From Solirubrobacteraceae bacterium (GTDB taxonomy: Bacteria; Actinomycetota; Thermoleophilia; Solirubrobacterales; Solirubrobacteraceae): 53,392 nucleotides of DNA. The stretch covers positions 1 to 53,392 of the forward strand of contig JAUYGN010000080.1 of assembly GCA_030690545.1 (NCBI GenBank). Direction: 5' to 3'. This document shows, piece after piece, positions 3,621-39,848 of the stretch; within the stretch, counting starts at the first letter, position 1; every line of letters starts with the position of its first letter. A model generated the notes under the pieces. That model was not told where the DNA came from. It was given only the letters and a program-made list of their open reading frames with translations, and ran no database searches. The translations under genes and the position numbers were made by a program.

Positions 3621-3894
3621 GGACCGTGCTAGGCGGGGAGTCAGCGGTGCCCTGTCGCTCGTAATCCGCTATAGCGAGGCCGAATCCCCTCTCGAGGGGC
3701 GCGGCCTTCGGGGTCAGCCCGCCTGCGGTGGTGCTGATGGCCCGGGTCCCGCGCGGTGTCGGCCCGTGAATCAGGTCAGGTCCGGAAGGAAGCAGCCTTA
3801 AGCGGTCACCGTCATGCGCAGTGGGAGTGCCCGGCCGGAGCCATCGCAGTCGAACGCGTCCGGGGGCTGCATCTCGGAGGAGGGTGCACGGTCC
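3621..3894 (+). ncRNA. ffs: Signal recognition particle RNA, large (Alu-containing) type
   Basis: The universal Ffh-binding apical motif GTCAGGTCCGGAAGGAAGCA begins at 3775. The 5' part (GTGCTAGGCGGGGAG at 3626-3640, then a GGTGCCCTGT element and ATCCGCT) matches the Alu domain of Bacillus subtilis scRNA as I remember it, so this is the roughly 270-nt form and not a 100-nt 4.5S RNA. The ends are set by a perfect 9-bp closing helix, GGACCGTGC (3621-3629) with GCACGGTCC (3886-3894). It acts with Ffh in cotranslational targeting of membrane and secreted proteins. dnaX lies 3.4 kb downstream. Confidence 0.93.
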
Positions 3895-24807: not shown

Positions 24808-26343
24808 CTACCGCCGGCGGCGCAGCACGCGCCGGTCGTCGGGCAGGCGCTTCGTGTAGCGCGCCTGGTCGAGGTGCTCGAGCAGCGCCTCGGCGTACTT
24901 GCGCGACGTCCCGAGCTCGTCGCGCAGGCGCGCGAGCGTCACCGCCCCCTCGCCGGCGATGATCGCGCCGACCCGCTCGGCGACGACGGCGAGGGCGTCG
25001 CGGTGCGCGTAGAGGTCACGGCCGATCCGCACGGCGATGCCCGCCTGGACGAGCGTTGGCAGATGCTCGACGTCGACGCTCAGCTCGGCGCGCGAGAGCG
25101 GCTCGTGGCCGGCCGCGAGCAGCCGCGCCGCGAGCTCGAGCACGTCGGGCTCGAGCGCCGGCTCCGACGTGGCGGACGCGGTCCCCTCGTCTACGGGCGA
25201 TGCGGCGGCGGCCGCTGGTGGCTCGGGCTCCGGCTCGGGCTCGCCACGCCGTATCCGCTCCAGGCGCGCCAGCACGTCGGCGCGGCGACCATGCCGCCGC
25301 GCCCGCGGATCGAGCACCGTGCCGCCGGCCAGCGTGTCGGGCGGTGCGACCGATCGCACGACGAGCCGGTCGCCCGCGGCGGCGAGCAGCGGTGCCTCGA
25401 GGCGCACCTGCCACAGGCCGGTGCCGAGCGCGGCCAGCCGCGCCGCCACCGCCCGCGTGCCGTGATGGACCATGACGCGCCGGCCGTGCAGGTCGTCGCG
25501 CAGGTCTAGCGCCGCGTCGATGACCTGCGTCGGCACGAGTCCCGCCGCCGGATCGGCGAGCGCATCGCCGCGGGCGACGTCGCGGCGGGCGACCGCGGCG
25601 AGGTTGACGGCCACGCGCTGCCCGGCGTGGGCCCGCTCGGCGGGCTCGTCGTGCACCTGCAGCGACCGCACGCGGACGGGCCGCTGCGCGGGCAGCAGCG
25701 TCAGCGTGTCGCCGACCGCGAGGCTGCCCGACCACAGCGTCCCCGTGACGACGGTGCCCGCGCCGTGGATCGTGAACGCGCGGTCGATGTGCAGCACGGC
25801 CGGGCCGTCGCGGCGGCCATCGTCGCGCGGCGTCACGTGCTCCGCGACGCGCTCCAGCGCCGCCGCGACGTCCGCCACGCCGTCGCCGGTGCGCGCCGAG
25901 CACGCGACGATCTCGGCGTCTGGGAACAGCTCGGCGGCTTCCGCGGCGGCCCGCTCCGGAGCCGCGCGGTCGCTCTTCGTGATCGCGACGACGCCCTGCT
26001 CGATCCCCAGCGCCGCGAGCACCTCCGCGTGCTCGAGCGTCTGCGGCATGACGCCGTCGTCGGCGGCGATGACCATGAGATGGAAGTCGATCCCGGTCGC
26101 TCCGGCCACCATCGTCCTGACGAACCGCTCGTGGCCGGGCACGTCGACGATCGAGACGTGCCGCCCGCCCGGGAGCACGAGGGGCGCGAAGCCGAGCTCG
26201 ATCGACATGCCGCGCGCCTTCTCCTGGGGCAGGCGGTCGGTGTCGACGCCGGTCAGCGCCCGCACGAGCGCCGTCTTGCCGTGGTCGATGTGGCCGGCGG
26301 TCCCGAGCGTCAGGGCCGCTGGCCCTCGTGCGGCGTTCGGCAC
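24808..26343 (-). CDS. selB: Selenocysteine-specific elongation factor
   Basis: 511 residues with a GTG start. It carries Sec-tRNA to UGA codons marked by a SECIS hairpin. G1 GHIDHGKT is at 17-24; G2/G3 are GMSIELGFA and DVPGHERF; NKxD appears as TKSD. EF-Tu-like domains 2 and 3 follow. The C-terminal part after a Glu/Pro/Ala linker (about residue 350) is only about 130 residues, enough for about two winged helices against four in E. coli (614 residues). The retained pair should be the SECIS-binding ones. It follows mazF by 15 bp and so lies in the selA transcript. Confidence 0.95.
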
Positions 26344-26358: not shown

Positions 26359-26673
26359 TCAGAGGCCGAGGATGTCTTCGAGGGCTGCGTCGAGCGCGTG
26401 GATCTCGTGGGCGCTCAGCCGGCCGACCGAGTCGCCGAGGCGCGTGACGTCGATCGCGCGCAGTTGCTCGACCAGGATGCGCGCGTCCCGGTCGTCGATC
26501 GTGATCGTCGGCCGGAACGATCGCGGCGGCGCTGAGCGAGACGTCGGGGCGATCAGCACCGTGCTGAGTGCCAGCAGCTCGTCGGCCTGCACGATGACGC
26601 CGTAGCGTGTCCCGGCCTGCTCGCGACCGCGCGGCGCGGGAAGTCGCAGCCTGAAGATCTCGCCGCGGACCAC
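26359..26673 (-). CDS. mazF: MazF/PemK-type toxin
   Basis: 104 residues. The start [11 protein letters not shown], then [12 protein letters not shown] and [13 protein letters not shown], is the pattern of the MazF/PemK ribonuclease fold, which cleaves mRNA at short motifs. It lies 3 bp after its antitoxin gene and 15 bp before selB, so all three are almost surely cotranscribed. The length is normal for the family. Confidence 0.85.
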
Positions 26674-26676
26674 CGC

Positions 26677-26943
26677 TCAGTCCGGTGGCCAGTCCGGCGC
26701 GAGCGCCTCCATGTCGGCCAGGACCCCTTGCGACGCCGCCAGATCCCGGTCGTCGGTCGCGGCCTGCTGCGCCTCCTGGCGCAAGGACGATCGTCGTCGC
26801 CGCCGCGCGGCGGACTCTCGCAACGCCAGGCGCACGGCCGAAGAGTCCGAGCCGGCCTCGCCGCGCAGCAGCGCGAGGTCGCCTTCGGCGACGTCGTCGA
26901 GCCGTGCTTGCACCGTACGCGCCACAGCGCCATCGTACGACAT
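26677..26943 (-). CDS. Ribbon-helix-helix-type antitoxin
   Basis: 88 residues. RTVQARLDDVAEGDLALLRG and DSSAVRLALRESA fit a ribbon-helix-helix DNA-binding domain. The tail is charged, with RRRRR and an acidic C-terminus, and should wrap the toxin. The start codon sits inside the inverted repeat at 26935-26950, a probable operator. The pair lies between selA and selB, which is unusual. Confidence 0.75.
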   Translation of the reverse strand: MSYDGAVARTVQARLDDVAEGDLALLRGEAGSDSSAVRLALRESAARRRRRSSLRQEAQQAATDDRDLAASQGVLADMEALAPDWPPD

Positions 26944-28844: not shown

Positions 28845-28935
28845 CGGAACGGCGAAGGAGTCGAACCTTCCAGCGCGGAGTGCCGCGCCCCGCCGGTTTT
28901 GAAGACCGGATGGGCCACCGGGCCCGGGCCGCTCC
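28845..28935 (-). tRNA. selC: tRNA-Sec (anticodon UCA)
   Basis: The 91-nt RNA has an 8-bp acceptor stem GGAGCGGC/GCCGTTCC with one G-U pair, discriminator G at 28845, anticodon loop CTTCAAA on the stem CCGGT/ACCGG (anticodon at 28900-28902), a long variable arm (GCGCGGCACTCCGCGC) and the T-loop GGTTCGACTCC. The long acceptor stem, long variable arm and UCA anticodon are specific for Sec. CCA is not encoded. It lies 26 bp after selD on the same strand. Confidence 0.96.
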
Positions 28936-28961: not shown

Positions 28962-29990
28962 TCATCGCACCGCGATGGCGCCGGGCTCGCCGTCGACGAT
29001 CTCGCCGACGACCGGACCCGGCAGCGACGGCGCGGCGTCGGGCGCGACCGCGACGAGCAGCCCGCCCGACGTCGTCGCGTCGCACACGAGGCGCCGCCGC
29101 GATTCGGGCACATGCTCGGCGAACGCCGTGAAGGTCTCGGCGTACTCGCGATTGCGCCGGCTGCCGCCCGAGACGGAGTCGTCGCGCTCGAGCAGTTCCA
29201 TCACGCCGCCGATCGCCGGCACGGCCGAGGCATCGATCGCCGCCGCGACGCCGCTCGCGCGCCCGAGCGAGTGCAGGTGGCCGAGCAGGCCGAAGCCGGT
29301 GACGTCGGTCATCGCGTGCGCGCCGGCCGCGCGCGCCGCGGCGGACGCCGAGTCGTTGAGCGCCGTCATCGTCGCGACTCCGCGTGCCAGCAGGTCGTCG
29401 TCGCGCACGCCGCGCTTGCGCGCCGTCGTGATCGCGCCGACGCCGAGCGGCTTCGTGAGGACGAGCACGTCGCCGACCTGCGCTCCGGCGTTGGAGATCA
29501 GCTCGTCGGGATGGACGGTGCCGGTGACCGACATGCCGTACTTCGGCTCCGGATCGTCGATCGAGTGCCCGCCGACGACCGCGATCCCGGCTCCCGCCGC
29601 GACGTCCGCGCCGCCGCGCAGGATCTCGCGCAGGATCTCCCCGCCGAGCTGCTCGAGGGGGAACGCGACGACGTTCATCGCCGCCAGCGGCACCCCGCCC
29701 ATCGCGTAGACGTCCGACAGCGCGTTCGCCGCCGCGATCCGCCCGAAGTCGTACGGGTCGTCGACGATCGGCGTGAAGAAGTCGATCGTCATCACGAGCG
29801 CGATCTCGTCGGTCAGCTTGAGCACCGCCGCGTCGTCGGCCGTGTTCGATCCCACGAGCAGCCGCGGGTCGTCGACGGAGGGCAGCCCCCGGACGATCGG
29901 CAGCAGCGCCGCCGCCGGCAGCTTGCACCCGCAGCCGGCGCCGTGCGCGAGCGACGTGAGCGCCACGGGCGGGGCGTGCGGCGCGCTCAT
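28962..29990 (-). CDS. selD: Selenide, water dikinase
   Basis: 342 residues. It makes selenophosphate from selenide and ATP. The active-site motif is GAGCGCK with Cys20 and Lys23, so this copy uses Cys where some organisms have Sec. ADDAAV, MTIDFFTPIVDDPYDFGRIAAANALSDVYAMGG-type sequence and GGHSIDDPEPKYG are present. It is first in the minus-strand sel cluster and divergent from grdE. Confidence 0.96.
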   Translation of the reverse strand: MSAPHAPPVALTSLAHGAGCGCKLPAAALLPIVRGLPSVDDPRLLVGSNTADDAAVLKLTDEIALVMTIDFFTPIVDDPYDFGRIAAANALSDVYAMGGVPLAAMNVVAFPLEQLGGEILREILRGGADVAAGAGIAVVGGHSIDDPEPKYGMSVTGTVHPDELISNAGAQVGDVLVLTKPLGVGAITTARKRGVRDDDLLARGVATMTALNDSASAAARAAGAHAMTDVTGFGLLGHLHSLGRASGVAAAIDASAVPAIGGVMELLERDDSVSGGSRRNREYAETFTAFAEHVPESRRRLVCDATTSGGLLVAVAPDAAPSLPGPVVGEIVDGEPGAIAVR

Positions 29991-30472: not shown

Positions 30473-31741
30473 ATGCAAGCGGACGTCGGGCTGACGCGAA
30501 TGGTCCACGAAGTGAGCGAGCTCGACCTGGGCGAGCGCACGAGCTACGACGCGGGCCGCCTCACCGTCGGCGAGGACACGGTGCGTGACCTTCTGCAAGA
30601 CGGCGCGTTCGCCGAGGTCCGGCTGGGCGTCGCCTCGCCCGGCGACTCCGTGCGCATCGTCGGCGTGCTCGACGCGATCCAGCCCTGCTCCAAGGGGCCC
30701 GGCGGTGGCGGCGCGTTCCCCGGGCTGCTCGGTCCGGCGATGCCCGTCGGCCGTGGCGAGACCCATGTGCTGCGCGGCGCCGCCGTGCTGGCCGCCGGCT
30801 ACCTGCCGCGCGCGCAGGAAGCCGTCATCGACATGTCGGGACCCGCAGCGCCGCTGTCGCCGCTCGCCGCGACGCACAACCTCGTTGTCGAATGGACGCC
30901 CGCCGAGGACGCATCCTGGGAGGACGTCGACCAGGCGCTGCGGCGCGGGCTCGTCAAGGTTGCGGCTCACCTCGCCGAGGCGGCGCTGGATGCCGAGCCC
31001 GATGCTGTCGAGGAGCTCGCCGACCCCGCCACATCGGCCGCGAACGGCAAACCGCGCGTCGGGGTCATCCTCAACCTCCAGACGCAGGGCACGTTCAAGG
31101 ACGTCTTCGTTTACGGACGCTCCCTCTCCGGCGGCCTGCCGACCGTCATCTCGCCGACCGAGCTCGACGACGGCGCCGTCGTCAGCGGGCAGTTCGGCCA
31201 TCCCTCGCTGAAGAACCCCACGTACCTGCACCAGACCCACCCGGTGGTCGCCGCCCTGCGCGAGCGCTCCGACGAGCTCGAGCTGGCGGCGCTCGTCCTC
31301 TGCCCCGAGCCCGTCGACCAGGCGAACAAGGAGCTCGTCTCGGCGCACGCCGCGCGGCTGTGCAAGCAGCTGAAGCTCGACGCCGCCATCGCCACGAAGG
31401 AGGGCGGCGGCAACGCCGACGCCGACGTCTCGCTGAAGATGGACCGCCTCGAGGAGGAGGGGATCGCGGCCGTCGGCATCCTCGCCGAGATGGCGGGGCG
31501 CGACGGGACCGGACCGCCGCTCGTCGTCCCGCCCACGAAGGCCACGGCCCTCGTCAGCACCGGCAACTACGACGAGCGGATGACGCTGCCCGTAGTCGAG
31601 CGCGCACTGGGCCGCCCGAGCATCGCGCTGCTCGACGACCAGGCCTCGACCGACGAGGTCGTGCTGCCGGTGGCCGCCGTCTACTGCGCCCAGAGCACCC
31701 TGGGCTGGGGCCGCCTCACCTGCGCGGAGGTCCTCGCCTGA
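30473..31741 (+). CDS. grdE: GrdE-like reductase component B subunit lacking the pyruvoyl cleavage site
   Basis: 422 residues, start set by AAGGAG 8 nt upstream. It aligns along its full length with the proprotein subunit of glycine/sarcosine/betaine reductase component B: RPG-like SPGDSVRI, GRGETHVLRGAAVL, EAVIDMSG, LQTQGTFKDVFVYG, PTELDDGAVVSG, KNPTYLHQTHPV and AEMAGRDGTGPPL. In clostridial GrdE the proprotein is cut between Asn and Cys at about 241-242, the Cys becoming a pyruvoyl group that binds the substrate amine. Here that site is Gln240-Phe241 (codons CAG TTC at 31190-31195), so cleavage and Schiff-base chemistry should be impossible. It overlaps grdB by one base. Confidence 0.9.
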   Translation: MQADVGLTRMVHEVSELDLGERTSYDAGRLTVGEDTVRDLLQDGAFAEVRLGVASPGDSVRIVGVLDAIQPCSKGPGGGGAFPGLLGPAMPVGRGETHVLRGAAVLAAGYLPRAQEAVIDMSGPAAPLSPLAATHNLVVEWTPAEDASWEDVDQALRRGLVKVAAHLAEAALDAEPDAVEELADPATSAANGKPRVGVILNLQTQGTFKDVFVYGRSLSGGLPTVISPTELDDGAVVSGQFGHPSLKNPTYLHQTHPVVAALRERSDELELAALVLCPEPVDQANKELVSAHAARLCKQLKLDAAIATKEGGGNADADVSLKMDRLEEEGIAAVGILAEMAGRDGTGPPLVVPPTKATALVSTGNYDERMTLPVVERALGRPSIALLDDQASTDEVVLPVAAVYCAQSTLGWGRLTCAEVLA

Positions 31742-33039
31742 TGAAGATCGTCCACTACGTCAACCAGTTCTTCGCCGGCATGGGCGGCGAGGACTCCGCG
31801 GGCACCGGGCCGGAGCTACGCGACGGGGCCACCGGCCCAGGGCGCAAGCTCGCCAGCCTGCTCGGCGACGAGCACGAGATCATCGCCACCGCCGTCTGCG
31901 GTGACGACTACGCCGCGTCGCACCCCGAGTTCGCCGCCGAGCTCGTCGCCCGGGCCAAGGAGCGCGGCGCCGAGATGATCGTCGCCGGGCCCTCGTTCAC
32001 GAGCGGGCGCTACGGCATGGCGTGCGCGCGGATCGCCGCCGCGGCCAGCGAGGCGGACCTGCCCGCGCTGGCCTCGATGCACCCCGACAATCCCGGCATC
32101 GGCGAGGCCGCGGGCACGACGGTCGTCGAGAGCGGCCTGACCGCGCGCCAGATGAAGGACTCGCTCGAGCGCTTCGCCGCCGCCGCGCTGAAGATCGCGA
32201 GCGGCGAGGAGCTCACCGCCCGGGACGGCCGCATCGGCCCCGTGGCCCGCACGAACCGCTTCGCAGCGGACAACGCGGCCCAGCGCGCCGTCGCGCTCGT
32301 GCTCACGCGGCTCGGCGGCGACAGGGACGCCACCGAGATCCCGCTCCCGGACTTCGACAGCGTCACGCCCGCAGCGCCGATCGCCGACGCCGGCGAGGCG
32401 CTGTTCGCGCTCGTCACCGAGGGCGGCTTCGTGCCCTTCGGCAATCCCGACCGCCTCGAGTCGGCCCGCGCGACGAAGTGGGTGCGCCACTCGCTCGACG
32501 GCCTCGACTCGGCCGACGAGGGCGCGTTCATGTCGGTGCACGGCGGCTTCTCGACCGTGTGGGCCAATGCCGATCCGAACCGCATCCTCCCGCTCGACGT
32601 CGCCCGCGAGATGGAGCGCGAGGGCGCGATCGGGCGCCTGCACGGCGAGTACCTCGGCACGACCGGCAACGGCACGACGGTCGCCGACGCGCGCCGCTTC
32701 GGCATGGAGTGGGCCGCCGATCTGCGCCAGCAGGGCATCCAGGCGGCGATCCTCACCGCCACCTGAGGAACCGGCACGCGTTGCGGGTCAACGCTCACGA
32801 AGGAGCTGGAGCGCGCCGGGATCCCCACCGCGCTGCTGTGCAACCTCGTCTCGATCGCGCAGCGCGTCGGTGCGCCGCGGATCGTGTCGACGCGCGGCAT
32901 CCCGTTTCCGGCGGGCGACCCCGAGCTCGGGCCCGAGCAGGAGCGCGCCTGGCGCCGGCAACTGCTGCAGCGCGCGCTGCACGCCGTCGCCACGCCGGTC
33001 AGCGAGCCGACGGTCTTCGACGCCGATCCGGTTCAATAG
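31741..33039 (+). CDS. grdB: GrdB-like selenoprotein B, with in-frame UGA as Sec342
   Basis: 432 residues if UGA at 32764-32766 is read as Sec; conventional calling would stop after 341. The N-terminal part (VVHYVNQFFAGMGGEDSAG-type start, EIIATAVCGDDY, AGPSFTSGRYGMACA) and the 90 residues after the UGA (RCGSTLTKELERAGIP, RIVSTRGIPFP) both match GrdB, and the Sec position fits the family (about 350). A hairpin with GGGU in its loop begins 11 nt after the UGA. Clostridial GrdB reads Sec-x-x-Cys-x-x-Cys; here it is Sec-Gly-Thr-Gly-Thr-Arg-Cys, so the first Cys is Gly. The start overlaps the grdE stop. Confidence 0.93.
32778..32794 (+). promoter_or_regulatory. Candidate bacterial SECIS hairpin in grdB
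   Basis: GCGTTG (32778-32783) and CAACGC (32789-32794) form a perfect 6-bp stem around the loop CGGGT. The loop lies 18-22 nt after the UGA and carries the G-U bases that SelB recognises in the E. coli element. Spacing and loop fit a functional SECIS. Confidence 0.7.
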
Positions 33040-33058: not shown

Positions 33059-34495
33059 ATGCCGATACCGGTTGTCTCGGCCGCGAGCGCGGCACTCGCG
33101 CACGTGCCCGGCCTCTGCCGCCACGGCTCCAAGCCGTCGCGCGAGCTGCCGAAGAATCCTGAGGTTCAGGCGCAGTTCCTGGCCTCCCTGCGCACCTTCG
33201 AGCAGGCGGTGGCCTACGGGCCCCACCAGGCCTACCTCGGCGCGATCCACCCGCGCGACCTGCCTGAGCGGCCGTGGGTCGGCGCCGCCCCCAACGGCGA
33301 GGGCCGCTTCGCCGGCGTCGGCGAGCTCATGCCCGAGGACGAGTTCCTCGGCCTGCTGGCAGCGGTCGACGACTTCGGCCTCGTCAGGCTCGGTGCGCCG
33401 GAGGCCGCCGCGATCGGCGAGCGGCTCGCACGCCATCCGCTCGGCGCGCACTTCGACCTCGAGAAGGTGGCGGCGGCGGCCGGCGACGCCGAAGCGGTCG
33501 CCGCCGAGCCGGGGGCGTTGCCGCTGCACCTCGGCGCCGACCGCCTGGCGGCGGCCGTGCGTCGCGCCCACGAGAGCGATGCCGCCCTCACCGCGGACGT
33601 GTTCCTCGAGAACCTCGCGGGGAAGGCGAGCGCCACGCTGGCGCTCCTGCGCGTGCTCGCCGACAACGGCATCGATCCCGCCTCGATCGACTACGTCATC
33701 GGCTCCGGCGAGGAGGCGATCGGGGACCGCTACCAGCGCGGCGGGGGCAACCTGGGCAAGTCGGTGGCGGCGGCCGCGGGCTGCGTCAACGCCTCGGGCT
33801 GCGACGTCAAGAACTTCTGCGCCGCCCCGGTTCCCGCGCTCGTCATCGCGAGCAGCCTCGTCGCCGCGGGGGTCTTCCAGCGCGTCGCGGTGGTCGCGGG
33901 CGGCTCGCTGCCGAAGGTCGGGATGAAGTTCCAGGGGCACCTCAAGCACGACCTGCCGGTGCTCGAGGACGTGCTCGGCGCGAGCGCGCTGATCGTCGAG
34001 GCCGACGATGGTCGCTCGCCGCGCGTGCGGCTGGACTCCGTCGGCAGGCATCCGGTGGCCGCGGGGTCCTCGAACCCGAAGATCATGGAGGCGCTCGCGT
34101 TCGCGCCGCTCGACCGCCTCGGCATGAGCTCGACCGACGTCGACGACTACGCCACCGAGCTGCACAATCCCGAGATCACGGAGCCCCAGGGCTCGGGCAA
34201 CGTCCCGGAGCGCAACTACAAGACGATCGCCGCGCTGGCCCTGCGCAGGGGCGACATCGGCCGTGCCGACATGGGCGATTTCGTGGAGACGCGGGGGATG
34301 CCCGGCTTCGCCCCGACGCAGGGTCATATCGCCTCGGCGCTCTGCTACGTTCCGCACGCTCGCGCTCGGTTGATGGATGGGGGCGCGCAACGGGTACAGC
34401 TGATCGCGAAGGGCAGCCTGTTCCTGGGTCGGATGTCCGAGCAGTCCGACGGCATGAGCGTGCTGCTCGAGTCCAACGACGAAGCGGAAGGATGA
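33059..34495 (+). CDS. grdC: GrdC-like component C beta subunit
   Basis: 478 residues, 20 bp after grdB. The start PIPVVSAASAALAHVPGL, LRTFEQAVAYGPHQAYLG, PERPW, FAGVGELMPEDEFLGLL and DFGLVRL correspond to clostridial GrdC. The central GCVNASGCDVKNFCAAPVP and PVLEDVLGASALIVE, with ELHNPEITEPQGSGNVPERN near the end, give a thiolase-like fold with conserved Cys. In glycine reductase this subunit takes the carboxymethyl-Sec intermediate from GrdA and, with GrdD, releases acetyl phosphate. No grdD is in this cluster, so the product-releasing step here is open. Confidence 0.9.
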   Translation: MPIPVVSAASAALAHVPGLCRHGSKPSRELPKNPEVQAQFLASLRTFEQAVAYGPHQAYLGAIHPRDLPERPWVGAAPNGEGRFAGVGELMPEDEFLGLLAAVDDFGLVRLGAPEAAAIGERLARHPLGAHFDLEKVAAAAGDAEAVAAEPGALPLHLGADRLAAAVRRAHESDAALTADVFLENLAGKASATLALLRVLADNGIDPASIDYVIGSGEEAIGDRYQRGGGNLGKSVAAAAGCVNASGCDVKNFCAAPVPALVIASSLVAAGVFQRVAVVAGGSLPKVGMKFQGHLKHDLPVLEDVLGASALIVEADDGRSPRVRLDSVGRHPVAAGSSNPKIMEALAFAPLDRLGMSSTDVDDYATELHNPEITEPQGSGNVPERNYKTIAALALRRGDIGRADMGDFVETRGMPGFAPTQGHIASALCYVPHARARLMDGGAQRVQLIAKGSLFLGRMSEQSDGMSVLLESNDEAEG

Positions 34496-34499
34496 GCGG

Positions 34500-34841
34500 A
34501 TGGGAGCGGTAGCCGAGGCGACGCGCGAGAACTTCGACGAGCTCGTCGAGAGCGGCACCACGCTCGTCGACGTGTGGGGACCCGAGTGCCGGCCGTGCCT
34601 GGCGCTGAAGCCGCACGTCGAGAAGCTGGCCGAGGCCCGCGACGACATCTCGGTCGTCATGCTCGAGGCGCCCAAGGCGCGCCGGGTCTGCATCCGCCTC
34701 AAGGTCCACGGGCTGCCGACCTTCCTGCTCATGCACGACGGCGAAGAGGTGGCGCGGTTGTCGGCCTCGACGATCAGTCCGGCAGAGCTCAAGACCTGGC
34801 TCGACAAGAGCCTCGGCGAGATGACAGAGGAGGTGAGTTAG
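34500..34841 (+). CDS. trxA: Thioredoxin of the grd operon
   Basis: 113 residues. Active site WGPECRPC replaces the usual WCGPC-type motif, as in thioredoxins linked to glycine reductase, and the cis-Pro loop GLPTF is intact. It should re-reduce the Sec/Cys pair of GrdA. It lies 4 bp after grdC and 6 bp before grdA. A dedicated thioredoxin reductase gene is absent from the window, so electrons probably come from a general TrxB. Confidence 0.92.
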   Translation: MGAVAEATRENFDELVESGTTLVDVWGPECRPCLALKPHVEKLAEARDDISVVMLEAPKARRVCIRLKVHGLPTFLLMHDGEEVARLSASTISPAELKTWLDKSLGEMTEEVS

Positions 34842-34847
34842 CACCCT

Positions 34848-35306
34848 ATGTTCGAGAGCAAGCAGGTGATCGTGCTCGGCGAGCGCGACGGCATCGCGGG
34901 TCCCGCGATCGCGGCCTGCGTCAAGAGCGCCGGCGGACATGTCGAGTACACGTCGACGGAGTGCTTCGTCTGAACGGCCTCGGGGGCCATGGACCTCAAT
35001 AGCCAGGAGGTGATCAAGCGCCTAGCCGACGAGCACGGGGCCGACAATCTTGTCGTCATCCTCGGAGCTCCGGACGACGAGAGCGCGGAGATCGCCGCCG
35101 AGACCGTTGTGCTCGGCGATCCGACCTATGCAGGTGCATTGGCCGAGGCCCAGTTGGGTCTCTCCGTGTATCACGTACTTGAGGACGACTTTCGCGCGCT
35201 GGTCGACGAGGACGTCTGGGAAGAGCAGATCGGCGTCATGGCCGACGTGCTCGACGCCGAGGTCATCTCCGCGGCGGTCAAGGGCATGCGCGAGCAAGCG
35301 CCGTAG
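34848..35306 (+). CDS. grdA: GrdA-like selenoprotein A, with in-frame UGA as Sec42
   Basis: 152 residues if UGA at 34971-34973 is Sec. It starts MFESKQVIVLGERDGIAGPA, as GrdA does, and reaches TECFVU, the CxxU redox motif, followed by TASGAMDLNSQE. The second half (NLVVILGAPDDESAEIAAET, DPTYAGALAEAQLGLSVYH) matches GrdA to the end; the family length is about 158. It carries the carboxymethyl group from component B to component C. Ordinary annotation would give a 41-residue stub plus a separate small ORF. The ribosome-binding site AGGAGG overlaps the end of trxA. A GGCC-TCGGG-GGCC hairpin follows the UGA closely, but the SECIS is not clear by eye. Confidence 0.93.
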
Positions 35307-35376: not shown

Positions 35377-37551
<2,175 letters not shown>

Positions 37552-37788
37552 TGGCGGGCCGACACGCTAGCTGGAGCGTCAGGGCGCCGCGGGATGGCGA
37601 TCCCTTGGGCAGGACGATCCCGCTATACCCGGGCCGTGAGATGAGTGCGATCACCGACCTCCGATGCCGGTGTCCCGGCACCCGATCTCGACGGATCAGT
37701 CACCGATCATCGCCCGGCGCCGGGCGCGGACCCGCCGGTAGCATCGCCGGCTCCCCCCGACGCAGGACACATCCCCCGAGAGGCGACC
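37552..37788. promoter_or_regulatory. Divergent promoter region of the two isocitrate dehydrogenases
   Basis: 237 bp. Paired GATCCC elements flank TTGGGCAGGAC at about 37610-37622, next to CTATACCC, a -10-like sequence for the plus strand. No coding frame is convincing. Shared control of the two genes is inferred from position. Confidence 0.35.

Positions 37789-39848
<2,060 letters not shown>

What the first reader, a model, noticed from the sequence alone, without database searches (positions are those of the whole stretch)
31181..31210. GrdE without the pyruvoyl-forming Asn-Cys
The flanking sequence aligns closely with clostridial GrdE (GAVVSG before, KNPTY after), yet the cleavage pair is Gln240-Phe241. 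Without Cys no pyruvoyl group can form, so a primary amine such as glycine could not be held as Schiff base. As I recall, the betaine-specific component B has an uncut large subunit, so a quaternary amine is one candidate; a wholly different substrate is another.
Basis: partly seen in the sequence, partly recalled or inferred. Interest (0 to 1): 0.85.

Follow-up and report, generated by a model that had tools for sequence, protein, structure and literature searches.

The report
Actinobacterial glycine-reductase relative without pyruvoyl site
Oxygen-respiring actinobacteria carry a selenium enzyme related to glycine reductase that has lost both its self-made pyruvoyl cofactor and the usual acetyl-phosphate-forming subunit, so it probably cuts a different substrate (perhaps betaine) and passes on the acetyl group by a new route.

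Summary
The ORF at 30473-31741 is a GrdE-family protein (PF09338) in which the Asn-Cys cleavage pair of GrdE/GrdG is Gln240-Phe241. This is a fixed lineage trait: all 24 loci from 23 Actinomycetota genomes have Gln then Phe or Tyr there, and no Cys of the protein is conserved in all of them. GrdI beside betaine-reductase genes has Ser-Phe at the same place, and FarE (fluoroacetate) is reported to lack the Cys, so Cys loss alone is not new.

What is new is the system. The operon grdE-grdB(Sec)-grdC-trx-grdA(Sec) has no grdD, and no searched genome with these genes has a GrdD above PlsX-like background. The window's genome also lacks acetate kinase and a convincing phosphotransacetylase; all 20 genomes tested carry haem-copper oxidase. 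GrdB changes in parallel (UGTCTRC to UGTGTRC; STU to ATU in the window).

Best reading: an unprocessed, pyruvoyl-free selenoenzyme that reduces a carboxymethyl compound needing no Schiff base and hands acetyl from GrdC to CoA rather than to phosphate. The substrate is unresolved; betaine leads, weakly supported. It forms its own clade outside the sampled GrdE, GrdG and GrdI. New variant of a known kind.

The parts
30473..31741 (+). grdE-like gene, 422 aa, component B large subunit without processing site
   Evidence: PF09338 at 1.3e-97; start codon and upstream AGGAG-like site read
31190..31195 (+). Gln240-Phe241 in place of the Asn-Cys cleavage pair
31741..33039 (+). grdB-like selenoprotein gene, 432 aa, in-frame UGA (Sec342) at 32764-32766
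   Evidence: motif TATUGTGTRCGS
33059..34495 (+). grdC (component C subunit beta), 478 aa, candidate acyl-carrying Cys254 at 33818-33820
   Evidence: NF040746 at 549 bits, cut-off 450; FCA motif in every aligned sequence
34500..34841 (+). thioredoxin
   Evidence: PF00085; TrxA-like
34848..35306 (+). grdA selenoprotein gene, 152 aa, in-frame UGA (Sec42) at 34971-34973
   Evidence: NF040748 at 208 bits, cut-off 130; ECFVU motif
28962..29990 (-). selD, divergent neighbour
   Evidence: ORF; orthologue in four congener loci
28845..28935 (-). tRNA-Sec (UCA anticodon)
   Evidence: ARAGORN and Rfam RF01852, 66.2 bits
26989..28299 (-). selA
   Evidence: ORF; orthologues
24808..26343 (-). selB
   Evidence: ORF; orthologues

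Best explanation
This is an actinobacterial member of the glycine/sarcosine/betaine-reductase superfamily that works without a pyruvoyl group and without GrdD. Proposed mechanism: uncleaved GrdE and the selenoprotein GrdB form the substrate-binding component B. It takes a substrate X-CH2-COO- in which X is already a good leaving group and need not form an imine; the leading candidate is glycine betaine or a close quaternary relative. The GrdB selenolate (Sec342) displaces X; the Se-carboxymethyl group moves to GrdA Sec42; the GrdA Cys39/Sec42 pair, recycled by the operon's thioredoxin, reduces it; the acetyl group is taken up by Cys254 of GrdC. With no GrdD, no acetate kinase and no convincing phosphotransacetylase, the acetyl is most likely released to CoA and enters the TCA cycle, not to phosphate. 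Shown by sequence: gene content, both Sec codons, loss of the Cys, absence of GrdD and acetate kinase, presence of terminal oxidases. Inferred: order of the chemistry (from the glycine reductase literature), the substrate, and CoA as acceptor.
For: Q-[FY] at the cleavage site in 24/24 loci. All catalytic Sec/Cys positions of GrdA, the Sec of GrdB and the GrdC Cys kept. GrdD absent in the own genome and in every tested genome with these genes, best scores 16-33 bits against a cut-off of 350, as in PlsX-only controls. Acetate kinase absent in 15/20 including the own genome; only weak partial Pta hits, in the own genome at the place of the weak GrdD hit. Haem-copper oxidase in 20/20. GrdI references also lack the Cys. 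Betaine: OpuAC-type binding proteins in 20/20 genomes with grd against strong hits in 19/39 related genomes without; methyltransferase-like neighbours in two genomes.
Against: No biochemistry. No transporter or substrate-specific gene is linked to the operon in the window. BCCT betaine transporters are in only one of 20 genomes above the cut-off and the OpuAC association fades with a genome-size limit (p 0.02 for all, 0.14 within the order). GrdB lacks the first Cys of UxxCxxC, which the GrdH references keep. The CoA step rests on absence of other routes. Six clade members keep the STUG Ser in GrdB.
Confidence: 0.45

Rival explanations
1. A reductive dehalogenase of the FarEB kind: component B binds a haloacetate (fluoro- or chloroacetate), Sec displaces halide, no Schiff base is needed.
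For: FarE is reported to lack both processing cysteines and FarB the CxxC (PMC10838667); the clade likewise lacks both GrdE cysteines and the first Cys of the GrdB UxxCxxC.
Against: Score against the FarE model is 136 bits with a cut-off of 675, below the GrdG model at 215. No farA-type antiporter or radical SAM gene in the operon. The linked HAD genes are phosphatase-like (DxDGT), not haloacid dehalogenases.
Confidence: 0.15
2. A pyruvoyl-free reductase for a substrate outside the known set (for example a sulfonium or other N-, S- or O-linked acetate, or a non-acetate compound), used for assimilation or detoxification.
For: Own clade in both trees; far below every curated substrate-specific cut-off; respiring hosts; no neighbour shared by all.
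Against: Nothing positive points to a particular substrate; GrdA, GrdC and thioredoxin conservation favours the usual acetyl chemistry.
Confidence: 0.3
3. An ordinary glycine or sarcosine reductase that uses a carbonyl in GrdB (or none) instead of the GrdE pyruvoyl.
For: A second carbonyl in GrdB was proposed to be the glycine-binding group (PMC9908766, citing Andreesen 2004 and Wagner 1999); best-scoring curated models are the sarcosine ones (GrdF 427, GrdG 215 bits).
Against: The suggested GrdB carbonyl source, Ser of STUG, is Ala in the window and 17 other members; scores far under the 800/780 cut-offs; every GrdE/GrdG reference examined keeps Asn-Cys; no GrdD or acetate kinase to conserve energy.
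Confidence: 0.08
4. A degenerate, non-functional remnant or an assembly error.
For: Only the missing Cys and the missing GrdD.
Against: Same residues in 24 loci from independent assemblies, conserved operon, both UGA codons kept, dN/dS about 0.2.
Confidence: 0.02

Closest known systems
Betaine reductase component B (GrdH/GrdI)
   Same: GrdI also lacks the Asn-Cys pair and has Phe at the Cys position (SGSF); Sec-containing partner; shared components A and C
   Different: window protein lacks the GrdI insertion (QMEDDGYND) and PCSSKW motif; about 33% identity; separate clade; GrdB has UGTGTRC, GrdH has UGTCTRC; no BCCT gene in the operon, no GrdD
Fluoroacetate reductase FarEB (Cloacibacillus porcorum MFA1, PMC10838667)
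   Same: no processing cysteines in FarE and no CxxC in FarB, as reported
   Different: 136 of 675 bits to the FarE model; no radical SAM or antiporter gene; Far uses the host's grdA and component C; no FarE sequence was at hand to align
Glycine reductase GrdE/GrdB and sarcosine reductase GrdG/GrdF
   Same: same fold family (PF09338, PF07355), Sec in GrdB, same partners GrdA, thioredoxin and GrdC
   Different: no pyruvoyl site, no GrdD, GrdB without the first Cys after Sec, respiring hosts
D-proline reductase PrdA/PrdB
   Same: homologous pyruvoyl/Sec-type pair
   Different: low, partial matches only (PrdA 48 of 700 bits, PrdB 79 of 300); GrdA and GrdC present here

Membership tests
Glycine/sarcosine/betaine reductase superfamily | component B large subunit of PF09338 | tested here: met
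   327 bits, E=1.3e-97, residues 12-417
Glycine/sarcosine/betaine reductase superfamily | selenoprotein B with in-frame UGA | tested here: met
   TIGR01918 415 bits, cut-off 65; UGA aligned with the known Sec
Glycine/sarcosine/betaine reductase superfamily | selenoprotein A with CxxU | tested here: met
   NF040748 208 of 130 bits, ECFVU
Glycine/sarcosine/betaine reductase superfamily | component C made of GrdC and GrdD, giving acetyl phosphate | tested here: not met
   GrdC present (549 of 450 bits), GrdD absent from the genome and all tested relatives
Glycine or sarcosine reductase (GrdE/GrdG) | Asn-Cys cleavage site for the pyruvoyl group | tested here: not met
   Gln240-Phe241; 24/24 clade loci without Cys
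Glycine or sarcosine reductase (GrdB/GrdF, GrdG) | score over the curated substrate-specific cut-offs | tested here: not met
   glycine GrdB 377 of 602, GrdF 427 of 800, GrdG 215 of 780 bits
Betaine reductase (GrdH/GrdI) | uncut large subunit without the Cys | tested here: met
   no Cys at the site; GrdI references SGSF; lack of cutting itself inferred
Betaine reductase (GrdH/GrdI) | groups with or scores as GrdH/GrdI | tested here: not met
   GrdH model 376 of 775 bits; GrdI and GrdH references fall with the GrdE/G and GrdB/F references, apart from the clade
Betaine reductase (GrdH/GrdI) | reduces glycine betaine to trimethylamine | not testable with these tools
   needs enzyme assay
Fluoroacetate reductase (FarEB) | score over the FarE cut-off | tested here: not met
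   136 of 675 bits
Fluoroacetate reductase (FarEB) | releases fluoride from fluoroacetate | not testable with these tools
   needs enzyme assay

The most novel reading that the evidence does not exclude
A lineage of respiring actinobacteria uses a selenium-dependent, pyruvoyl-free and GrdD-free reductase that cleaves a substrate not used by any characterised Grd enzyme and releases acetyl-CoA directly from GrdC, as an assimilatory or detoxifying pathway rather than a fermentative one.
Probability: 0.3. Interest if true: 0.8.

Novelty: new variant of a known kind. Interest (0 to 1): 0.6.

Why it matters
Grd enzymes are textbook tools of strictly anaerobic amino-acid fermenters that make ATP through acetyl phosphate. 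A conserved version in respiring actinobacteria, with the cofactor-forming residue, the acetyl-phosphate subunit and (in most) acetate kinase all missing, implies another use of the same selenium chemistry. It is a natural test of two open questions: what the GrdE pyruvoyl is for, and whether GrdC alone can transfer the acetyl group. If betaine is the substrate, it would point to a source of trimethylamine in oxic soils and groundwater.

Tried and rejected
AlphaFold2 of GrdE (14 clade sequences) gave mean pLDDT 62 and under 50 around the site, so it was used for no claim and not searched. PDB sequence search gave only weak chaperonin matches, dismissed. Folding the RNA after both UGA codons gave no significant hairpin (z about 0); Sec decoding rests on the in-frame UGA, alignment with known Sec sites and the adjacent sel genes. 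The HAD gene beside grd in five loci (L024, L025, L026, L055, L062) looked like a dehalogenase hint, but its DxDGT motif and family scores point to a phosphatase. Methyl-metabolism neighbours (MtaA/CmuA-like, MTHFR) occur in only two clade genomes and one sister genome. No FarE sequence was at hand, so FarE was compared only through its NCBIfam profile. No paper found describes this clade, but the library is incomplete.

Full report
OBSERVATION. The ten codons at 31181-31210 read VSGQFGHPSL. Pfam assigns the protein to PF09338, the GrdE/GrdG/GrdI family, at E=1.3e-97. Aligned with reference proteins (P. acidaminophilum GrdG, annotated; A. noterae GrdE in a full glycine-reductase cluster; Photobacterium; E. 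gilvus GrdI beside annotated grdH), the Asn-Cys of GrdE/GrdG (SGNC) falls on Gln-Phe, and the second Cys of the motif is also missing. That this Cys becomes the pyruvoyl is experimentally supported for C. difficile GrdE (PMC9908766, labelled peptide starting at residue 242).

IS IT REAL. I collected 24 loci from 23 Actinomycetota genomes: ten loci from nine genomes of the window's order (one congener has two copies), nine from a sample of the phylum, and five from named genome contigs. Where named they are Solirubrobacteraceae, Thermoleophilaceae, Candidatus Siliceabacter and Acidimicrobiia MAGs. At the site all 24 have Gln, then Phe (9) or Tyr (15), then Gly-His-Pro, with Leu246 and Asn248 also invariant. 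No Cys of the window protein is conserved in all members, and Ser238 is Gly in two. dN/dS against three congeners is about 0.2. The site is therefore a maintained lineage feature, not an error.

ANATOMY. The operon is grdE 30473-31741, grdB 31741-33039 (UGA at 32764-32766, Sec342), grdC 33059-34495, thioredoxin 34500-34841, grdA 34848-35306 (UGA at 34971-34973, Sec42). Divergent on the other strand are selD, tRNA-Sec, selA and selB, so in this genus the Sec machinery sits beside its users; in the other genera it was not seen in the stretches fetched. The operon is conserved (about 52-93% identity by gene), although four members of one genus lack grdA in the fetched stretch and the thioredoxin is missing or moved in some. 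GrdB reads UGTGTRC in all 24, where the references have UGTCTRC, and has Ala instead of Ser two residues before Sec in 18 of 24, the window among them. GrdC keeps the FCA cysteine (Cys254 in the window) in every sequence aligned.

MISSING PARTS. GrdD (NF040747, cut-off 350 bits) is absent from the window's own genome (98.6% complete) and from all 21 genomes tested that have a GrdE of this or a more divergent kind; best scores were 16-33 bits, and control genomes without Grd also give sub-cut-off matches, as expected for PlsX. Acetate kinase is absent in 15 of 20, including the window's genome. Pta shows only weak partial hits of 26-32 bits in seven genomes; in the window's genome this hit overlaps the weak GrdD hit, as a PlsX would. 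All 20 carry haem-copper oxidase subunit I, mostly two or more copies. The usual end of glycine reductase, acetyl phosphate to ATP, is thus not available in the window's genome and probably not in most of the clade. The sequences are MAGs, so single absences could be gaps; twenty together are not.

MECHANISM. The known chemistry (Andreesen 2004 as cited in PMC9908766, PMC13188914 and PMC10838667) is displacement of the leaving group by the GrdB selenolate, transfer to GrdA, reduction with thioredoxin, and acetyl transfer on component C. The residues for these steps are kept here except those for pyruvoyl formation, the first Cys after Sec in GrdB, and the GrdD subunit. I infer an unprocessed GrdE, a substrate bound without the pyruvoyl, and an acetyl group that leaves GrdC to an acceptor other than phosphate, most likely CoA because GrdC is itself thiolase/KAS III-like (ACP_syn_III match). 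The last step is inference from absence.

SUBSTRATE. Two precedents lack the Cys: GrdI of betaine reductase (Ser-Phe in both references; PMC10838667) and FarE of fluoroacetate reduction (PMC10838667). The clade belongs to neither: in the GrdE tree it is a 100/100 group apart from GrdE+GrdG+GrdI (100/99), the GrdB tree agrees, and scores are far under the GrdF, GrdH, GrdB, GrdG and FarE cut-offs. For betaine: OpuAC-type binding proteins in 20/20 genomes with grd against strong hits in 19/39 related genomes without (p=3e-5 overall, 0.006 within the order; 0.02 and 0.14 after a genome-size limit; phylogeny not corrected for); an MtaA/CmuA-like methyltransferase divergent from grdE in two genomes; MttB-family genes in both sister-group genomes. 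Against: no linked transporter in the window, BCCT in one of 20, no MttB in the clade itself. I put betaine or a close quaternary relative first, well short of certainty.

The step from no Cys to no pyruvoyl is sound. The step to no Schiff base needs care: a GrdB carbonyl has been proposed as the glycine-binding group (PMC9908766), with the STUG Ser as one candidate source (PMC10838667). In the window that Ser is Ala, so both candidate sources are gone; in six relatives it is Ser.

SISTER GROUP. Two more divergent actinobacterial loci (L064, L066) have the same operon with UGTGTRC, no GrdD in the genome, and Asn-Gly-Ala-Tyr at the site. Their GrdB is sister to the clade (100/99). A third GrdE homologue (L065) lacks Asn-Cys as well. 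Cys-less GrdE proteins are thus more varied than the two published cases.

NOVELTY. Superfamily membership is met for GrdA, GrdB, GrdC and GrdE but not for the two-subunit component C. Membership in the glycine and sarcosine subfamilies fails on the cleavage site and scores; GrdH/GrdI and FarE membership fails on scores (and tree, for GrdH/GrdI). I class it as a new variant of a known kind: it works like a Grd reductase but should not be annotated as glycine, sarcosine or betaine reductase on present evidence.

Noticed in passing
window 26359-26943 (-): A PemK/MazF-type toxin gene with a small upstream partner ORF sits between selB and selA, inside the selenocysteine gene cluster.
   Followed up: no
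L024:8443-9690, L025:4729-5517, L026:141-818, L055:13444-14187, L062:8911-9681: Orthologous HAD-family phosphatase-like gene (53-89% identity) directly beside the grd operon in at least two families; DxDGT motif, so not a haloacid dehalogenase.
   Followed up: partly
L058:10638-11627 and L063:10781-11770: MtaA/CmuA/MtbA-like methyltransferase (URO-D family, below curated cut-offs) divergent from grdE in both genomes of one family.
   Followed up: partly
L066:11239-12183: Methylenetetrahydrofolate reductase directly upstream of the divergent grdE-like gene; that genome and its sister also hold 4-5 MttB-family genes.
   Followed up: partly
L017 and L021 (genome G004): One congener carries two full copies of the grd operon, each with its own selA, selB and selD.
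   Followed up: no
window 35377-38868: A monomeric-type isocitrate dehydrogenase gene (-) lies next to an Iso_dh-family dehydrogenase gene (+), two different kinds side by side.
   Followed up: no
L057, L059, L060, L061: Four genomes of one genus have grdE-grdB-grdC with an FAD amine-oxidase-like gene upstream on the same strand and no grdA within the fetched stretch.
   Followed up: partly
window 3624-3891 (+): Bacterial large SRP RNA (RF01854, 165.5 bits).
   Followed up: no
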